From NCBI GenBank assembly GCA_026989505.1, contig JALSJF010000002.1, positions 1 through 35,634 on the forward strand: a stretch of 35,634 bases of DNA, in the 5' to 3' direction. Below are positions 17,695 to 23,128 of this stretch, piece after piece. The notes beneath the pieces are model-generated. The model made no database searches. It saw only the letters and a program-made list of their open reading frames with translations, and was not told the origin of the DNA. The number at the start of each line of letters is the position of its first letter. Positions within the stretch are counted from its first letter, which is position 1. Origin of the DNA: Cyclobacteriaceae bacterium (GTDB taxonomy: Bacteria > Bacteroidota > Bacteroidia > Cytophagales > Cyclobacteriaceae). The position numbers were made by a program, and so were the translations under genes.

Positions 17695-17709
17695 TTTACG
17701 GATAGTTAT
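17695..17709 (+). repeat. 14-bp inverted repeat, left copy
   Basis: TTACGGATAGTTAT (17696-17709) recurs in inverted orientation at 23198-23211. The two copies bracket the AT-rich segment holding the candidate peptide locus. The left copy also contains the stop codon of the small HTH gene. A 14-bp match could arise by chance in a window of this size, so the position is the main reason to note it. Confidence 0.55.
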
Positions 17710-17939
17710 TTATTTTTTTGGAACTTAATTCTCATCCTGCCCTCCGGTTCATAAACATAACTATTTCTGTTTCCATCCCATTTGATTGGTGCACCCAATT
17801 CCTTCATAAGTCCAAGAAATTCGTAAAGGGTGCTTTCAGAGATTTCGAGTTTGGCGGCTAGTTCGGAAGGTTTGCCAGTGGCTTTCATACTAATGAGCCT
17901 ATCTATCCTGGAAAAACGATAAAAGAACTTTCTTGGCAT
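17706..17939 (-). CDS. Small winged-helix/HTH DNA-binding protein
   Basis: This 77-aa protein looks like a single HTH unit: RIDRLISMKATGKPSELAAKLEISESTLYEFLGLMKELG (residues 11-49) has the pattern of HTH_11/DeoR-type N-terminal domains, followed by a short basic beta-wing (RNSYVYEPEGRMRIKF). It has no effector domain. Stand-alone HTH proteins of this size often accompany secondary-metabolite or mobile loci in Bacteroidota, but I cannot assign a target. It lies on the same strand as the peptide operon, 327 bp beyond its last gene, within the same AT-rich segment. Whether it regulates the operon is inference. Confidence 0.7.
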   Translation of the reverse strand: MPRKFFYRFSRIDRLISMKATGKPSELAAKLEISESTLYEFLGLMKELGAPIKWDGNRNSYVYEPEGRMRIKFQKNK

Positions 17940-18266
17940 AAGAACATATTAGGCACGATATATCACAAAAGTCAAATCAAACAAACAGGTGAATTGTTTT
18001 CAACAACGGTCAGATTAGAATCAATATTAATAATAACAAATGACTTAGTAAACTTATTACCGTTTTTTTTCACAACCAAGTATCCTGGCAGGCATAGAAA
18101 TAATAGCTGTACCTCACTACTGACCGACTTGATGTTTTAGCCTGTTTTTAAAGTAGCGACTAGTTACTGGCTTGATCAACAATACTCTTCAGGTTACCCA
18201 GTGCCGGATATGCATCGCACTATCCACGGAGAAAACAGTCGCATTCATTTTTATTTTTTGTTGTGC
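17940..18266. other. 327-bp gene-free AT-rich stretch
   Basis: I see no convincing coding frame, RNA or terminator here. It must hold the promoter of the HTH gene (reading leftwards from 17939) and the 3' end of the operon's last gene. A short T8 run at 18063-18070 lacks a proper stem. Confidence 0.6.
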
Positions 18267-19487
18267 TCATTTCCGCTTTTTGAAATATGTCCCAAAAGCA
18301 TTTTCTTTTTCAAATGAAGCAATAATTAAGTCTTCTTCCAATGTTCGTCTGATGATAGGATTGCCCCGCCATAATTTTGGCTTATATCTGGCATTTTCAA
18401 AATTAGATACACCTTCTAATTCCAGGCCAGGATCCCGGAGTTTGACCGGCTCATCATTTAATCGCTGATAAATAATAAACATGGAGGTAACTTTGGATGG
18501 AAAAACTTCTCCGTTTTGAATAAAATCATAGGTAAATTCTACTGTAATATATTCGATATCACCAGTTCTTTCAGAAAAATTGAACCTATACATATGCTTA
18601 GGGTTTCTCAGTTCAAGGTCTTTGTTACCTTCATACCCCTCAATTTGGTCTGCCCCTAAAGCATGTTCCACTATTGCCATGTATTGAATTAATCGGTTTT
18701 TGGTAATATTATACACAAAGGAGCCATATGTATTGACGGGGTTCAAAAGGCTATGATTGGGCTCATATTTTACCACATGATACGTATCCGTGCCATTTGA
18801 ATAGGTTCTATCAAGAGTAAAATCATAGCCAGAAAAAAAATCTTCAGCAAAAGGCCTGCCAAGCCGCGCCTCATTCGTTTTAAGGCCTGGTGAGTAAATT
18901 ATATTTCCTACGGTAAGGTAAGAAAAGTTTTTATATGACATAAATACATAAGCGGTGTCATATTTTTTCCGGGCAAATCGAGCTTGGTTAATTCTCATTT
19001 TTTTAATGCCATTAGAAGTATAAGCTACGTCATAAAAAGCCTCAATCCATTCGGTAGCTACAGTATCCCTGAAAGTTTTCTGGCGATAGAATGCTTTGCC
19101 ATACTTAATGGGGCTTTCTTTAAGCCAGTCCATCACTTTTCTAACTAAAGGCATTATATCCGTTACTATAACCTCATCAAGCACGATCACCTGAGGGTCC
19201 ATGTATAATACAATATCCTTGCCGGCAGTAATTGATGATATAGGAACATTCAGTGAAGTATAGGCAATGTGAGTCATGAGCAGTGTATCGTCCTCTGAAA
19301 AATTACCGGATAGTTCAAATTCACCATTTTCATTGCTGATTGTCCCTTCACCGGTTTTGGGGGCAAAAATGTGAACAGAGCCAACGGGCTGATTCTTACG
19401 ACTCTCCAGTACTCTTCCTGAAATAACCTGTGCCTTTCCAAAAAAGGACAGTAAAACAAAAAATTGCACTAAAAGATATATCTTCAT
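18267..19487 (-). CDS. Exported protein with CarboxypepD_reg-like N-terminal domain
   Basis: This 406-aa protein has a signal peptide (about residues 1-19, ending GKAQ). A beta-sandwich domain of the carboxypeptidase-regulatory-like type follows (VISGRVLESRKNQPVGSVHIFAPKTGEGTISNENGEFELSG..., residues 21-100). Next comes a DUF5686-like junction (VLDEVIVTDIMPLVRKVMDWLKESPIKY) and a long beta-rich region. Such proteins occur at the Bacteroidota cell surface or periplasm, often near TonB-dependent systems, but there is no TonB plug or barrel here. It overlaps the upstream gene by 4 bp, so it is part of the peptide operon. A role in export, immunity or uptake of the product is possible. Confidence 0.8.
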   Translation of the reverse strand: MKIYLLVQFFVLLSFFGKAQVISGRVLESRKNQPVGSVHIFAPKTGEGTISNENGEFELSGNFSEDDTLLMTHIAYTSLNVPISSITAGKDIVLYMDPQVIVLDEVIVTDIMPLVRKVMDWLKESPIKYGKAFYRQKTFRDTVATEWIEAFYDVAYTSNGIKKMRINQARFARKKYDTAYVFMSYKNFSYLTVGNIIYSPGLKTNEARLGRPFAEDFFSGYDFTLDRTYSNGTDTYHVVKYEPNHSLLNPVNTYGSFVYNITKNRLIQYMAIVEHALGADQIEGYEGNKDLELRNPKHMYRFNFSERTGDIEYITVEFTYDFIQNGEVFPSKVTSMFIIYQRLNDEPVKLRDPGLELEGVSNFENARYKPKLWRGNPIIRRTLEEDLIIASFEKENAFGTYFKKRK

Positions 19488-19879
19488 TTTTTCCCCTTCT
19501 GCTTTTTTTCCTTCTGCATAATTAAATACTTATCTCTAATGTAGTATGGCGGTATATAAGCACCTTCTATCGTCATAAAATGCCTCCCATTAATGTAGTA
19601 ATCCTCAAGTGGAAATACATCGAAATAAAAATTAAGATTAAGATTTGTCTGGTTATTATTAACCGGACTTTTTTTAGAAAGGCTACTCAGCTTATACCAC
19701 CTCCTTAAAGGGTCAATCCCTTTAAATACCCTAAAATCTTTATTAATCTTAGACCTTTCATATTGGTTAAGATAATAATTGAAGCCGTTGGGCTCAGTTG
19801 AAGTTGAGTCAACCTGTCCTAAACAATTGCCTGGATAAATTAAGAAAATAACTAAAACAAATGATGAGATAGGGTTCAT
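19484..19879 (-). CDS. Small secreted protein of unknown family in the peptide operon
   Basis: This 131-aa protein starts, by my choice, at the ATG at 19879, because an N-terminal signal sequence follows at once (MNPISSFVLVIFLIYPGNCLGQ). The longer frame from 19918 adds 13 unlikely residues. The mature part has many aromatic residues (FNYYLNQYERS, NFYFDVFPLEDYYINGRHF, YIPPYYIRDKY) and a very basic tail (KEKKQKGKK). A Cys near the end of the hydrophobic stretch (NCLGQ) leaves a lipoprotein possible. No family is recognised. It lies 59 bp downstream of the peptide gene and overlaps the next gene by 4 bp. It may be an immunity or transport accessory. Confidence 0.65.
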   Translation of the reverse strand: MNPISSFVLVIFLIYPGNCLGQVDSTSTEPNGFNYYLNQYERSKINKDFRVFKGIDPLRRWYKLSSLSKKSPVNNNQTNLNLNFYFDVFPLEDYYINGRHFMTIEGAYIPPYYIRDKYLIMQKEKKQKGKK

Positions 19880-19938
19880 ATTAACAAGTTTGCAAAATAA
19901 GACAAAGCTCGGGCACACAAGGTGCCCGTAACTTAAGT

Positions 19939-20127
19939 TTAGAATTTAATTTTAACCCCAACTTCAGCTTTGACCTTACAGTCTGAAAAATCTCCAGTAC
20001 AAGTCCCTCCTCCCTTTACGATTGGGGTCCATTTACCAAATTCAACCCTTTCTTCCAGTTCTTCAACTTCAAACAATTGTGCCAGTTTTACCTTGTCAGG
20101 CATTCGATTTTTAATTGTAGTTTTCAT
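19939..20127 (-). CDS. Candidate RiPP precursor peptide (62 aa)
   Basis: The peptide has a precursor-like division. Residues 1-30 are charged and helical, with a leader-like LAQLFEVEELEERVEF. Residues 31-62 contain the only Trp (Trp33), a Gly-Gly-Gly run (39-41), two Cys (43 and 50) and an alternating hydrophobic/Lys tail ending KIKF. The FEVEELE stretch recalls acidic leaders bound by RRE/PqqD-like domains, and the upstream M50 protein has such an N-terminal region. The start ATG at 20127 is 20 bp after the M50 stop. There is no signal peptide and no adjacent C39 peptidase transporter. It is too short to assign by family, so context is the main evidence. Confidence 0.7.
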   Translation of the reverse strand: MKTTIKNRMPDKVKLAQLFEVEELEERVEFGKWTPIVKGGGTCTGDFSDCKVKAEVGVKIKF

Positions 20128-20147
20128 TTGTGTTAAACGTTAATTTG

Positions 20148-21383
20148 TCAAGGGTGAGTTATTATATCCGCTTGGTCCACCCTATTTAACCCAAGCTCGG
20201 ATGCTGGTATGTTTCTTTTAAGTACTCTTACCAAACCTTTGCCGATCCATCGCCCAAAAAGCAGGTAGAAGCCTAATACTATCAGGTTCTCAAAGCTGAT
20301 GAAGTTAATGAATGGGTCAATATTATTCCGTAATAGTTCTTTGACCAAATTCAAGATTAGTAAAGGAAAACCTAGTAAAGATTGCCAATATTCAATTATC
20401 ATCCATATTACATACAGGTATAATATGGTTCCATTTGATATTCCATAGAAGATAAGAAAAAATCGACTCCTACTCCATTTCCCAACATTGGTTTGAGACC
20501 TGTTTTTGAGATCAGACCACAAGGTTCTGATAGCTCTGTTCGCTTTTGGTAGCAAATTAGGAGTATTGGTCAAGTCGGAAAGAACCCAGTACCCATCAAA
20601 GCGTATAAAAGGATTTAGCTCCGTTATTGTTTTAACCAGAATAGAAACAGAAACAATTAAATAAACCATTTCATTTGTCAATAAGTAAATGATACACCAG
20701 ATAAAAGCATAGACAATTTCAAGATAAATGCCTCCTAAATTAGCAATGGTACGTTTGTGTTTATCCATACTCCATATGCTGGTAACATCTGCGTAGAGAA
20801 CAGGAAAAATTGAATAAAAGCCAAACCCTATTTCGCCATGACTAACCCCAAATTTTCGACAGGCAGCAACATGACCCAACTCGTGAAGTATCATGGCTGG
20901 GTACACGATAGAGATATACAAAATAAAATTATCCAAACTAATCTTGGTATTATCAAGAGAAAAACAGCCCCATCCAACAGTAAGGGTGAAAACAAAACAA
21001 ATACTGATTACAAACCAAAATATGGTTGGATGGAAAAGTGGTATGAAAGGAGTTGCAAGTAACCCGGAAAAATTAGTGCTAAGCAAAGGCACTTTCAGGT
21101 TGAGGTAACTCTTTTTGCTAAACATTTTGGCATCTTCCGATAATAAAACGTTGGCATTCCCAAACTTCTGTTGTAGAAATTCTTCAAATTCTTGCCTATC
21201 CAATTTCTGCTCAAACTCCTGATTAAATTGATCTAAAACTTCTTGTTGATTTTTAGCATTTCTCAAAATGTCCAAGAGTTTTTTCGTGTAATGATTAACA
21301 AGCAAATAATTGCCATTGGGTGTATTGGCAACCCATTTATTCATGCCAAATGGTGTAATCCATATTTTTTTGATGTAGGTCAT
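20148..21383 (-). CDS. M50-type intramembrane metalloprotease with PqqD-like N-terminal region
   Basis: This 411-aa protein combines an N-terminal soluble domain (about residues 1-80) with a polytopic M50/site-2-protease core. The core has the zinc motif HELGH at 167-171 and a third-ligand segment NPFIRFDGYW (Asp263). The N-terminal domain (NYLLVNHYTKKLLDILRNAKNQQEVLDQFNQEF...) has the layout of PqqD/RRE domains that bind leader peptides. Related M50 proteins are found in peptide loci, such as the YydH type in epipeptide clusters, and are proposed to cut the precursor. The ATG overlaps the stop of the terpene-type gene by 4 bp, and the peptide gene follows 20 bp later. Leader removal is the simplest role. 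Confidence 0.85.
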   Translation of the reverse strand: MTYIKKIWITPFGMNKWVANTPNGNYLLVNHYTKKLLDILRNAKNQQEVLDQFNQEFEQKLDRQEFEEFLQQKFGNANVLLSEDAKMFSKKSYLNLKVPLLSTNFSGLLATPFIPLFHPTIFWFVISICFVFTLTVGWGCFSLDNTKISLDNFILYISIVYPAMILHELGHVAACRKFGVSHGEIGFGFYSIFPVLYADVTSIWSMDKHKRTIANLGGIYLEIVYAFIWCIIYLLTNEMVYLIVSVSILVKTITELNPFIRFDGYWVLSDLTNTPNLLPKANRAIRTLWSDLKNRSQTNVGKWSRSRFFLIFYGISNGTILYLYVIWMIIEYWQSLLGFPLLILNLVKELLRNNIDPFINFISFENLIVLGFYLLFGRWIGKGLVRVLKRNIPASELGLNRVDQADIITHP

Positions 21384-23128
21384 AAGTTGGCAATTTTTTT
21401 TAGTATCACACTTAATACTGTTAGCGTAGTAAACACGCGTTTATGATCGTCAACACAAATATTAACCCCGAAAGAGCTATTCCGCCAACTTTTTACCATG
21501 CTCTGGCTCATGACATCTGTCTGCGGAATCACTAAGATTCGATCGGATTTCCAACTACCATTTACTGTTTGCATACCTGCCAACCAGTCAACAGAACGTT
21601 GGCATTTCTCTTTCAAAAGGTCATCTTGGCTAAAAGCAATAATAAACCAAGCTGTTGCGTAAACTGGGCTCAACCACCAATAAGAACCTAGGCTTCCATT
21701 TTCATTAAGCTGTTTTGCTAAAAATTCTGCTGTTTTGAAGTAAGTTTCTTTTTCGTTGGGAAACAATGACAAAATATAGCAGGCACTTGCTGAAACACAA
21801 TTATGAGAAGTAGCCCAGCCTTTTAAACTAATACTATCATCTAGTTGGATTTGCTGCCTCAGTGCCTGCTCATCAAAATATGTTTGCCAGCCCCCTGCAG
21901 GGTCCTGGAACTTTTTCCATTCATTCAAATCGTACTCCTTGACGTTATCAAACAACAATTTTCGTGCTGCTAAACCAAAAGACATTGAGTCTGCATCTTG
22001 AACAATAGATACATTGTAAGAGTTTTGGTTATCACTTCTATAAGCTAAGGCATCGGATTTTTTAAGACGTTCGATTATATCCGCTGCTAAAGGGTAGTCT
22101 GCCAGAAGAAATGCAGCATAGCTCGAAATCCAATTTTTCCCTAATCCGGCACTCGTCATAAAATCTGATAATGAATACTGGTCTTCGAAACTATTTAGAA
22201 TAAAATTTACACTTCGGTGTATTGTATTTTCAAGCATGCCATTTGTTACATTAGATGACCTCAAAATTGTCTGCGTTGCCAAATTAGCCTTTGCTTTTGT
22301 CTTATCTATAAGTAGTTGTATTTCATCAATCTGTGAACGTGCAATTTCAATTTCGTAGTGAATAAAAGTACATAGTTCTTGGAGGCGGTAATTTATAGCA
22401 ATATGAATGGCTTGTTCGAAGTGTGTAATTGCTTTGGAAATCAGCCTCTGCGCTTGGCCTGAAACATAGAAATACCGATACAAAAATTCATTTGATGGGT
22501 TATTTTGAACTCCTGCTTCCTTCCTTAGTGATTCAAATGTCAAAGCATGTGCATAGGTATATTGTCCAACTTCAATATCGTCTAAGAAGTCATCAACATC
22601 ATCTTTACATTGAAAAGCTATATGGATTTCCTTCAGGAGAAATATTACGTCTTCATTACCTATAGCCACATGTTGGTCTGATAGATGCGAAAGAGCATTT
22701 ACAATAGAGTAGCAGACTGAAGATTTCCCAGTTGCAATTCTGTTAAAATCTTCCTCTGTTAGTTGTTTTTTTTCTGTCGAGTAGTTTTTCTCGGTTCTAA
22801 GCGTAGTAAAATATTTTTCTTTGTTTCGCTCAAAGTCAATCCAAAAAGGGTGATGCGCATCAAATAATAAAGACAACAACTTAATAGCAACTTCAATATG
22901 GTTAAGTGCCTCCTTTAGCCTATAGGTTGCTATCGACTGGTCGAATATCCCATCTATAATAATTAAAGCCTGAAAATATGCAGTTGAAGCCGAGTTCAGT
23001 ACCTCACATTCTTTTTGAGATATTTTGTATATAGGATTGAAAAAATCAATTATTCTTGGATAAAATTCAAGGTTAGTTTGTTGCACTACTACGGCACGCG
23101 AATGCTCTGTCTTTGAAGAAACGTTCAT
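21380..23128 (-). CDS. Two-domain isoprenoid enzyme: class I prenyl-synthase-like plus class II terpene-cyclase-like
   Basis: In this 582-aa protein, residues about 20-290 are helical and carry class I isoprenyl diphosphate synthase signatures: DGIFD at 59-63 (position of the first Asp-rich motif DDxxD, second Asp lost), a GKSSVCYSIVNALSHL helix at 134-149, and FQCKDDVDD at 172-180 (intact second Asp-rich motif). Residues about 300-580 resemble an alpha/alpha-barrel of class II terpene cyclases: DADS at 378-381 (DxDD position with the middle, acid-donating Asp retained), GGWQTYFD, NGSLGSYWW, NGSWKSDR and RVFTTLTVL. No signal peptide is seen. The reaction is unknown. It heads the peptide operon and is coupled to the M50 gene. 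It may prenylate or modify the peptide, or make a free terpenoid. Confidence 0.75.
   Translation of the reverse strand: MNVSSKTEHSRAVVVQQTNLEFYPRIIDFFNPIYKISQKECEVLNSASTAYFQALIIIDGIFDQSIATYRLKEALNHIEVAIKLLSLLFDAHHPFWIDFERNKEKYFTTLRTEKNYSTEKKQLTEEDFNRIATGKSSVCYSIVNALSHLSDQHVAIGNEDVIFLLKEIHIAFQCKDDVDDFLDDIEVGQYTYAHALTFESLRKEAGVQNNPSNEFLYRYFYVSGQAQRLISKAITHFEQAIHIAINYRLQELCTFIHYEIEIARSQIDEIQLLIDKTKAKANLATQTILRSSNVTNGMLENTIHRSVNFILNSFEDQYSLSDFMTSAGLGKNWISSYAAFLLADYPLAADIIERLKKSDALAYRSDNQNSYNVSIVQDADSMSFGLAARKLLFDNVKEYDLNEWKKFQDPAGGWQTYFDEQALRQQIQLDDSISLKGWATSHNCVSASACYILSLFPNEKETYFKTAEFLAKQLNENGSLGSYWWLSPVYATAWFIIAFSQDDLLKEKCQRSVDWLAGMQTVNGSWKSDRILVIPQTDVMSQSMVKSWRNSSFGVNICVDDHKRVFTTLTVLSVILKKIANL

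What the first reader, a model, noticed from the sequence alone, without database searches (positions are those of the whole stretch)
19939..23128. Candidate terpenoid-modified RiPP locus: prenyl-synthase/terpene-cyclase fusion, M50 protease and a 62-aa peptide
Three genes on one strand are joined by a 4-bp overlap and a 20-bp gap: a two-domain isoprenoid-type enzyme, an HELGH protease with a leader-binding-like N-terminus, and a short precursor-like peptide. M50 plus small peptide is a known RiPP arrangement. A class I isoprenoid enzyme acting on a peptide has precedent in ComQ, which prenylates a Trp of ComX, and this peptide has exactly one Trp (Trp33). A class II cyclase-like half in the same protein suggests the prenyl chain could be cyclised on or for the peptide. 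I know of no described pathway with this combination. The motifs are seen; the product is inference.
Basis: partly seen in the sequence, partly recalled or inferred. Interest (0 to 1): 0.92.

Follow-up and report, generated by a model that had tools for sequence, protein, structure and literature searches.

The report
Terpene-decorated ribosomal peptide gene cluster
A bacterium carries genes to make a small peptide, attach a terpene chain to its single tryptophan (and perhaps curl the chain into rings) and trim it with a membrane protease; this kind of pathway was first described in 2024, so this is a clear new example rather than a new kind.

Summary
The reading as a terpenoid RiPP is strongly supported. 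Of 29 distinct fusion loci collected from Bacteroidota, 28 have the same M50 within 1.4 kb and 27 a small peptide with the leader F-x-V-E-E-L-E-x-R-x-E (consensus); the two without a peptide lie on short contigs. All 42 cores counted carry Trp; no other residue does so. Models place the N-half with GGPP synthase and Ord1, the C-half with the cyclase MstE, and the protease N-terminus with RiPP leader-binding domains. The novelty claim fails: Hubrich et al. 2024 characterised ChrPC, a fused trans-IDS-like prenyltransferase and cyclase acting on an internal Trp (seen only through a 2026 review). Special to this window: its cyclase half is the only one of 29 lacking about 49 residues, so prenylation is more secure than ring formation. 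Against: one prenyltransferase-only locus has precursors without Trp. The shared RRE-M50 protease, leader and CarbopepD_reg neighbour are not in the texts I could open.

The parts
21380..23128 (-). prenyltransferase-cyclase (PC) fusion maturase, 582 aa
22337..23083 (-). P domain, trans-IDS fold (residues 16-264)
   Evidence: model vs human GGPP synthase 2q80 Z 23.1, rmsd 2.3, 238 aligned; vs Ord1 9v4g Z 20.0
22940..22954 (-). first Asp-rich motif DGIFD (D59, D63); first and last Asp kept in 32 of 32 P domains compared
22589..22603 (-). second Asp-rich motif DDVDD (D176, D177, D180); DDxxD kept in 32 of 32
21380..22258 (-). C domain, class II terpene cyclase fold (residues 291-582)
   Evidence: MstE 6sbb Z 27.2, rmsd 3.0, 277 aligned; profile of 19 fusions vs MstE 3.4e-55
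21983..21997 (-). DADS motif (D378, D380); D-x-D in 29 of 29; D380 aligns with the second Asp of MstE's DADT
21563..21600 (-). junction where about 49 residues (probably one helical hairpin) are absent relative to the other 28 fusions
   Evidence: DNA of the junction
20148..21383 (-). M50 (site-2-type) membrane protease, 411 aa
21132..21383 (-). N-terminal RiPP recognition element-like winged helix (residues 1-84)
   Evidence: TbiB1 with leader peptide 5v1v Z 7.8, rmsd 3.0, 82 aligned; PqqD 5sxy Z 5.3
20871..20885 (-). HELGH zinc-site motif; H167, E168, G170 and H171 invariant in 23 of 23 aligned
19939..20127 (-). precursor peptide, 62 aa
20041..20127 (-). leader (residues 1-29) ending in FEVEELEERVE
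   Evidence: the leader/core border is inferred
19942..20040 (-). core FGKWTPIVKGGGTCTGDFSDCKVKAEVGVKIKF
20029..20031 (-). Trp33, inferred prenylation site
   Evidence: Trp in 42 of 42 cores counted
19484..19918 (-). 144-aa ORF of unknown role, 20 bp after the peptide
   Evidence: no relative among the ORFs held
18267..19487 (-). CarbopepD_reg_2 protein, 406 aa; relatives at 15 of 29 fusion loci and at 4 of 4 precursor loci without maturase (model built from 11 of these proteins)
17706..17939 (-). 77-aa HTH protein, possible regulator; relatives in the stretches of L053, L058, L009, L051, L052

Best explanation
A terpenoid-RiPP gene cluster of the ChrPC kind. The 62-aa precursor is recognised through its FEVEELEERVE leader by the winged-helix (RRE-like) N-terminus of the M50 protein. 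The trans-IDS-like P domain transfers a prenyl chain (length unknown; C10-C20 by analogy with ChrPC) from its diphosphate to Trp33, four residues into the core. In the family the MstE-like C domain then protonates and cyclises the chain on the peptide; in this window the C domain lacks one stretch of about 49 residues, so the product may be linear or differently cyclised. The M50 protease removes the leader at or in the membrane, near E29-F30. Shown: gene order, homology, predicted fold, motif and Trp conservation, co-occurrence. Inferred: prenylation at Trp33, chain length, cyclisation, cleavage site, the RRE's ligand, and the role of the CarbopepD_reg partner.
For: 29 distinct fusion loci: M50 in 28, overlapping or within 11 bp in 25 and within 0.83-1.35 kb in 3; leader peptide in 27. 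In the window's family of genomes: full-length fusion in 12 of 390, credible precursors in 13 of 390 with 11 shared, M50 at E up to 1e-30 in 14 of 356 including those 12. Trp in 42 of 42 cores counted, 0 Trp in 1158 leader residues, no other residue in all cores; log10 P about -17 over 31 loci at an assumed 1.25% Trp background and taking loci as independent. The leader model used to find the peptides stops before the Trp. Folds: GGPP synthase, Ord1, MstE; site-2 proteases and RRE domains. DxxxD 32/32, DDxxD 32/32, D-x-D 29/29. Characterised analogue ChrPC: review PMC13290415.
Against: No product is known. One P-only locus (L098) has two Cys-rich precursor-like ORFs without Trp. The window's cyclase half lacks about 49 residues found in 28 of 28 others. 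The M50-leader module also occurs without a detected P domain, beside an ATP-grasp maturase and with a peptide lacking Trp (L127), so the M50 alone does not prove terpenoid chemistry. L090 shows no M50 on its 12-kb contig. Foldseek alone gave the M50 model no match at E up to 0.001, and only 1 of 23 M50 members hits Pfam PqqD. Q three residues before the second Asp motif is usual in ordinary IDS too (recalled), so it is not diagnostic.
Confidence: 0.8

Rival explanations
1. Prenylation only (a narrower form of the best explanation): the P domain prenylates Trp33, but the C domain of this window is inactive because part of its alpha-alpha barrel is gone, so the peptide carries a linear chain (with, at most, the ComX-type ring of the Trp itself).
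For: Window is the only 1 of 29 fusions without this segment; MstE has it too. P-only loci with the same M50 exist (L085, L087, L098), so the system tolerates absence of a C domain.
Against: The rest of the C domain is well kept: D378, D380, the YWW motif, no stop inside; the model keeps the MstE fold at Z 27.2 over 277 residues. It could also be an assembly collapse in a 273-contig draft.
Confidence: 0.35
2. A free-terpene synthase: the fusion makes and cyclises a small isoprenoid, and the peptide and protease belong to a separate RiPP pathway that happens to lie beside it.
For: Chimeric prenyltransferase-cyclases that make free terpenes exist (fungal enzymes among the hits). Lone MstE-like C domains occur with neither leader peptide nor M50 in the fetched stretch (L084, L086, L088, L092).
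Against: M50 in 28 of 29 and leader peptide in 27 of 29 fusion loci; Trp invariant in otherwise variable cores; ChrPC precedent.
Confidence: 0.06
3. Another residue is the target (Cys or Tyr), and Trp is kept for another reason such as protease recognition.
For: L098 has a P domain and M50 but Cys-rich precursor-like ORFs without Trp.
Against: Cys in 26 of 42 and Tyr in 17 of 42 cores, against Trp in 42 of 42; the first Trp sits at core positions 3-8 in 37 of 42 and at 18-37 in 5 of 42, which argues against a fixed protease signal; all characterised trans-IDS-like peptide enzymes target Trp (review section 2.4).
Confidence: 0.07

Closest known systems
ChrPC (Hubrich et al. 2024, Chem 10:3224, doi 10.1016/j.chempr.2024.07.026; not held, seen only through review PMC13290415, sections 2.3 and 2.4, passages and the first part of its reference list)
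   Same: Fusion of a trans-IDS-like prenyltransferase domain and a cyclase domain, acting on an internal Trp of a ribosomal peptide
   Different: Window C domain lacks about 49 residues; whether the ChrPC cluster has an RRE-M50 and the VEELE leader I could not read
NctPC (same paper, same review)
   Same: Prenyltransferase fused to an MstE-like cyclase; Trp target; C20 chain
   Different: P domain is of the ABBA barrel fold, not trans-IDS
ComQ/ComX and PalQ/PalX
   Same: trans-IDS-like enzymes that prenylate peptide Trp
   Different: No cyclase domain reported; ComQ is said to lack the second Asp-rich motif (PMC10853753, passages), which is kept here in 32 of 32
MstE (PDB 6sbb-6sbg)
   Same: C-domain fold and D-A-D-[ST] motif
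   Different: MstE is a single-domain cyclase; its structures carry prenylated dihydroxybenzoate
Daptide and YydH/LiaK M50 proteases (NCBIfam NF041824, NF058609)
   Same: RiPP-associated intramembrane metalloprotease, E 2.1e-28 and 5.6e-13
   Different: Far below both cut-offs (99.5 of 300 and 49.1 of 225 bits)

Membership tests
ChrPC-type prenyltransferase-cyclase RiPP maturases | trans-IDS-like P domain | tested here: met
   model Z 23.1 to GGPP synthase, Z 20.0 to Ord1; Asp-rich motifs
ChrPC-type prenyltransferase-cyclase RiPP maturases | MstE-like C domain fused in the same protein | tested here: met
   Z 27.2 to MstE; sequence E 4e-17 alone, 3.4e-55 as a profile of 19
ChrPC-type prenyltransferase-cyclase RiPP maturases | C domain intact and competent for cyclisation | tested here: inconclusive
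   D-x-D kept, but about 49 residues present in 28 of 28 others are absent
ChrPC-type prenyltransferase-cyclase RiPP maturases | precursor peptide with internal Trp near the maturase | tested here: met
ChrPC-type prenyltransferase-cyclase RiPP maturases | Trp prenylation (C10-C20) followed by ring formation | not testable with these tools
   needs expression and mass spectrometry
ChrPC-type prenyltransferase-cyclase RiPP maturases | sequence relationship to ChrPC itself | not tested
   the paper is not held and I had no ChrPC sequence
ComQ family (IPR033965) | first Asp-rich motif kept, second absent, no fused cyclase (as described in PMC10853753 and PMC13290415) | tested here: not met
   second motif DDVDD present and a cyclase fused
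MstE-type single-domain cyclase | single domain | tested here: not met
   fused to a P domain
Daptide metalloprotease NF041824 | score above 300 bits | tested here: not met
   99.5 bits
YydH/LiaK epipeptide metalloprotease NF058609 | score above 225 bits | tested here: not met
   49.1 bits
Site-2 (M50) intramembrane proteases | HExxH, a later Asp, and the site-2 protease fold | tested here: met
   HELGH and D263 in 23 of 23; Z 8.2-9.6 to RseP, SpoIVFB, M. jannaschii site-2 protease; Pfam Peptidase_M50 below its cut-off for the window protein, matched by 21 of 23 members at E up to 0.01
RiPP recognition element (PqqD-like) domains | winged-helix fold of three strands and three helices | tested here: met
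   strands 8-13, 16-20, 26-30 and helices 31-42, 46-57, 63-77; TbiB1 Z 7.8, PqqD Z 5.3
RiPP recognition element (PqqD-like) domains | binding of a leader peptide | not testable with these tools
   needs a binding assay

The most novel reading that the evidence does not exclude
Membrane-coupled maturation: the terpene put on Trp, usually 3-8 residues after the leader, anchors the precursor in the bilayer exactly where the RRE-bearing site-2-type protease cuts, so that prenylation licenses intramembrane release of the peptide; a CarbopepD_reg partner then handles it outside. The leader plus RRE-M50 would be a plug-in module shared by prenyl-only, prenyl plus MstE-like and prenyl plus second-type cyclase maturases, and by an ATP-grasp system. 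In the window a cyclase that has lost one barrel hairpin would give a linear or new ring type.
Probability: 0.3. Interest if true: 0.62.

Novelty: new member of a known kind. Interest (0 to 1): 0.42.

Why it matters
Peptides carrying cyclised terpenes are a very recent class with, as far as I could read, two characterised maturases. The set assembled here (29 loci, 42 precursor cores, several enzyme layouts, among them Pedobacter, Mucilaginibacter, Hymenobacter, Flavobacterium, Chryseobacterium and Cytophagales draft genomes) gives a panel of natural enzyme-substrate pairs, shows which peptide residue is under selection, and points to an RRE-bearing membrane protease as the probable leader-removal step. 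The window's shortened cyclase is a natural test of whether the whole C domain is needed.

Tried and rejected
A single-protein scan of genome contigs with the window fusion found nothing; the three-row alignment found 12 loci. Pfam and NCBIfam give the fusion only sub-cut-off matches; PHROGs gives nothing useful for the two small proteins. NCBIfam has no match for the four precursors of this kind that were scanned. The 144-aa ORF has no relative among the ORFs held. Plasmid records hold partial matches in two Hymenobacter plasmids only. Not followed up: of the 26 of 390 genomes with any match, 14 are partial or weak; I looked at six of these places (L010, L011, L059-L062) and left the others. 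L062 (a C-like protein of 463 aa, with a doubtful P-like neighbour, E 0.009) is in none of the counts. Considered and rejected: the free-terpene reading, because of the co-occurrence; and use of the Gln before the second Asp motif as a Trp-enzyme signature, because five fusions lack it at that position (L022, L023, L056, L083, L089) and ordinary IDS have it too (recalled). Those five are also the five whose first Trp lies far into the core after a Cys; they may be one clade (no tree was built), so I count this as a lead, not a test. Ten paper searches gave the review PMC13290415 as the only held text on ChrPC that I recognised; that the M50 or leader is unreported cannot be claimed, since the primary paper was not readable.
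Full report
Observation. The gene row runs on into a 144-aa ORF, a CarbopepD_reg_2 protein of 406 aa and a 77-aa HTH protein. The five 1-kb steps from 18001 to 23000 have a G+C of 0.36-0.38 against 0.42-0.57 in the other steps shown, so the cluster is probably acquired.

Relatives. A scan of 59 genomes (own included) gave two further full-length fusions; reading them showed the same set of genes, including a small peptide whose leader matches that of the window while its core does not. With an alignment of the three fusions, 12 loci came from named genomes and 12 full-length fusions, own included, from 390 genomes of the window's family (14 more genomes had only partial or weak matches). Searches of 390 genomes of the order and 395 of the phylum, which share some genomes with the family set, added more. 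After removing duplicates I hold 29 distinct loci in which a P domain and a C domain share one protein (closest pairs 87% and 71% identical), three with a P domain alone beside the M50 (L085, L087, L098), four with a lone C domain (L084, L086, L088, L092) and five with a more distant lone P-like protein (L010, L011, L059-L061).

Association. In the 29 fusion loci the M50 is present in 28: overlapping the fusion or within 11 bp in 25, and 0.83-1.35 kb away in three (L057, L093, L095). In L091 it is split over two frames and in L052 it lies in a longer frame. The exception, L090, is a 12-kb contig whose fusion holds a TAG. A leader peptide is present in 27; the exceptions, L012 and L055, are contigs of 4.6 and 3.7 kb, and the genome of L055 (G371) has a matching precursor on another contig, L122. 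A CarbopepD_reg relative is in 15 of 29 fusion stretches and in 4 of 4 stretches that have precursors without a maturase (L119-L122); that model was built from 11 of these proteins. Seen from genomes: precursor profile in 14 of 390 family genomes, one of which (E 0.008, inside a 1088-aa frame) I discount; 11 of the 12 fusion genomes are among the remaining 13, and the two others carry precursors plus CarbopepD_reg without a fusion, G237 with a 108-aa piece of M50 and G239 with none found. The M50 profile matches 14 of 356 family genomes at E up to 1e-30: all 12 fusion genomes, and two weaker ones, G169 and G071, with no P or C domain in the stretch fetched. In the fetched stretches none of the five distant lone P-like proteins or four lone C domains has the M50 or a hit to the leader model.

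Precursors. The leader consensus is F-x-V-E-E-L-E-x-R-x-E; F19, E23, L24, E25, R27 and E29 are invariant in 26 aligned precursors, with looser forms in the loci with the second cyclase type. Behind it the cores differ freely, yet 42 of 42 cores counted hold Trp (45 found by the leader model, three second copies dropped, which also hold Trp; 41 different sequences; 27 fusion loci and 4 loci without maturase); no other residue is in all; leaders have 0 Trp in 1158 residues; 35 of 42 have exactly one Trp. In 37 of 42 the first Trp is at core positions 3-8; in five (L022, L023, L056, L083, L089) it is at positions 18-37, one or two residues after a Cys. The leader model ends before the Trp. Against this: two precursor-like ORFs of the P-only locus L098 have no Trp, while those of L085 (one) and L087 (two) have it; these were found by eye and are not in the 42.

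Enzyme. The model of the window fusion has mean pLDDT 86.1. Residues 16-264 match human GGPP synthase (2q80, Z 23.1, rmsd 2.3, 238 aligned) and Ord1 (9v4g, Z 20.0), which the review calls a farnesyltransferase of free tryptophan; residues 291-582 match MstE (6sbb, Z 27.2, rmsd 3.0, 277 aligned), tied with the Actinoplanes prenylcyclase 6ij1. The first Asp-rich motif keeps its first and last Asp in 32 of 32 P domains, though only 4 of 32 keep the second Asp of the textbook DDxxD (counted by eye; textbook form recalled); the second motif DDxxD is kept in 32 of 32. The C domain keeps D-x-D in 29 of 29: 24 have D-x-D-[ST], as in MstE's DADT, and five (L093-L097) have D-x-D-D with a W-Y-[YW] segment where the others have YWW, a second kind of cyclase half.

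A caveat special to the window. Its C domain is the only 1 of 29 without about 49 residues (counted against L012) between the helix at residues 506-517 and the NGSW segment; MstE has this stretch as well. The reading frame is intact. It may be a true deletion between two similar repeat ends, or an assembly collapse; I cannot tell without reads. P-only loci show that absence of a cyclase is tolerated in this system. I therefore put prenylation of Trp33 near 0.8, of which ring formation in this organism is about 0.45 and a linear chain about 0.35.

Protease. The M50 model has mean pLDDT 87.1. Foldseek alone gave it no match at E up to 0.001; its best rows were SpoIVFB and TbiB1. In the second look its membrane part matches RseP, SpoIVFB and the M. 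jannaschii site-2 protease (Z 8.2-9.6), and residues 1-84 match the leader-binding protein TbiB1 (Z 7.8, rmsd 3.0, 82 aligned), a chain of the microcin synthetase McbBCD (Z 6.5) and PqqD (Z 5.3). These Z values are modest, but the rows shown for that stretch at Z 3.5 or more are all RiPP enzymes or leader-binding proteins. It is related to, but far below the cut-offs of, the daptide and YydH/LiaK proteases.

What is known. The review PMC13290415 (abstract, sections 2.3 and 2.4, passages, and part 1 of 4 of the reference list seen) reports from Hubrich et al. 2024 that the P domain of ChrPC, a trans-IDS-like enzyme, prenylates an internal Trp with C10-C20 donors and its C domain cyclises the chain, and that NctPC does the like with another P fold and an MstE-like C domain. 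The primary paper is not held. The window is thus a new member of a kind described in 2024. What I did not find described, in the texts that I could open, is the RRE-M50 protease, the shared leader and the CarbopepD_reg partner; the primary paper may contain them.

Verdict. Known in kind, good in evidence. The finding was right on the biology and wrong on precedence.

Noticed in passing
window 18001-23000: Low G+C island (0.36-0.38) where the other 1-kb steps have 0.42-0.57; the whole cluster is probably acquired.
   Followed up: no
L093-L097 (fusion genes): Second kind of fusion: same P domain, M50 and Trp-bearing precursors, but the C half has D-x-D-D and a W-Y-[YW] motif, unlike MstE.
   Followed up: partly
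L085, L087, L098: P domain alone beside the same M50; L085 and L087 precursor-like ORFs have Trp with a drifted leader, L098 ones are Cys-rich without Trp. The contig of L087 has the length of the Hymenobacter sp. BRD128 plasmid NZ_CP053909.1, which matched at the same place.
   Followed up: partly
L119 8590-10283, L120 1883-3961, L121 7388-8800: Precursor genes beside a CarbopepD_reg protein without any maturase; in L120 only a 108-aa piece of the M50 is left. They may use an enzyme encoded elsewhere or be remnants.
   Followed up: partly
L127 6418-9861: A related M50 and an ELEERLEM leader-like peptide without Trp stand beside an ATP-grasp maturase (GRASP_w_spasm model, 214.8 of 230 bits): the leader-protease module seems shared with another RiPP class.
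   Followed up: partly
window 18267-19487; L053 13399-14619: CarbopepD_reg partner with a C-terminal block around FW-x-x-NPI; only the N-terminus of the L053 one matches an NCBIfam model (BamP, 26.5 of 230 bits). Role unknown.
   Followed up: partly
L094 7319-8364: Six precursor genes in a row before the maturase, each with its own short core carrying Trp.
   Followed up: no
L059-L061, L010, L011: Lone P-like proteins (302-318 aa) without M50 or leader hit in the fetched stretch; in L059 and L060 they stand next to a membrane-like protein of about 180 aa. Perhaps another pathway.
   Followed up: no
L062 2-2385: A C-like protein (463 aa, E 5.8e-18) with a doubtful P-like neighbour (331 aa, E 0.009), no M50 or leader hit; possibly a split relative.
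   Followed up: no
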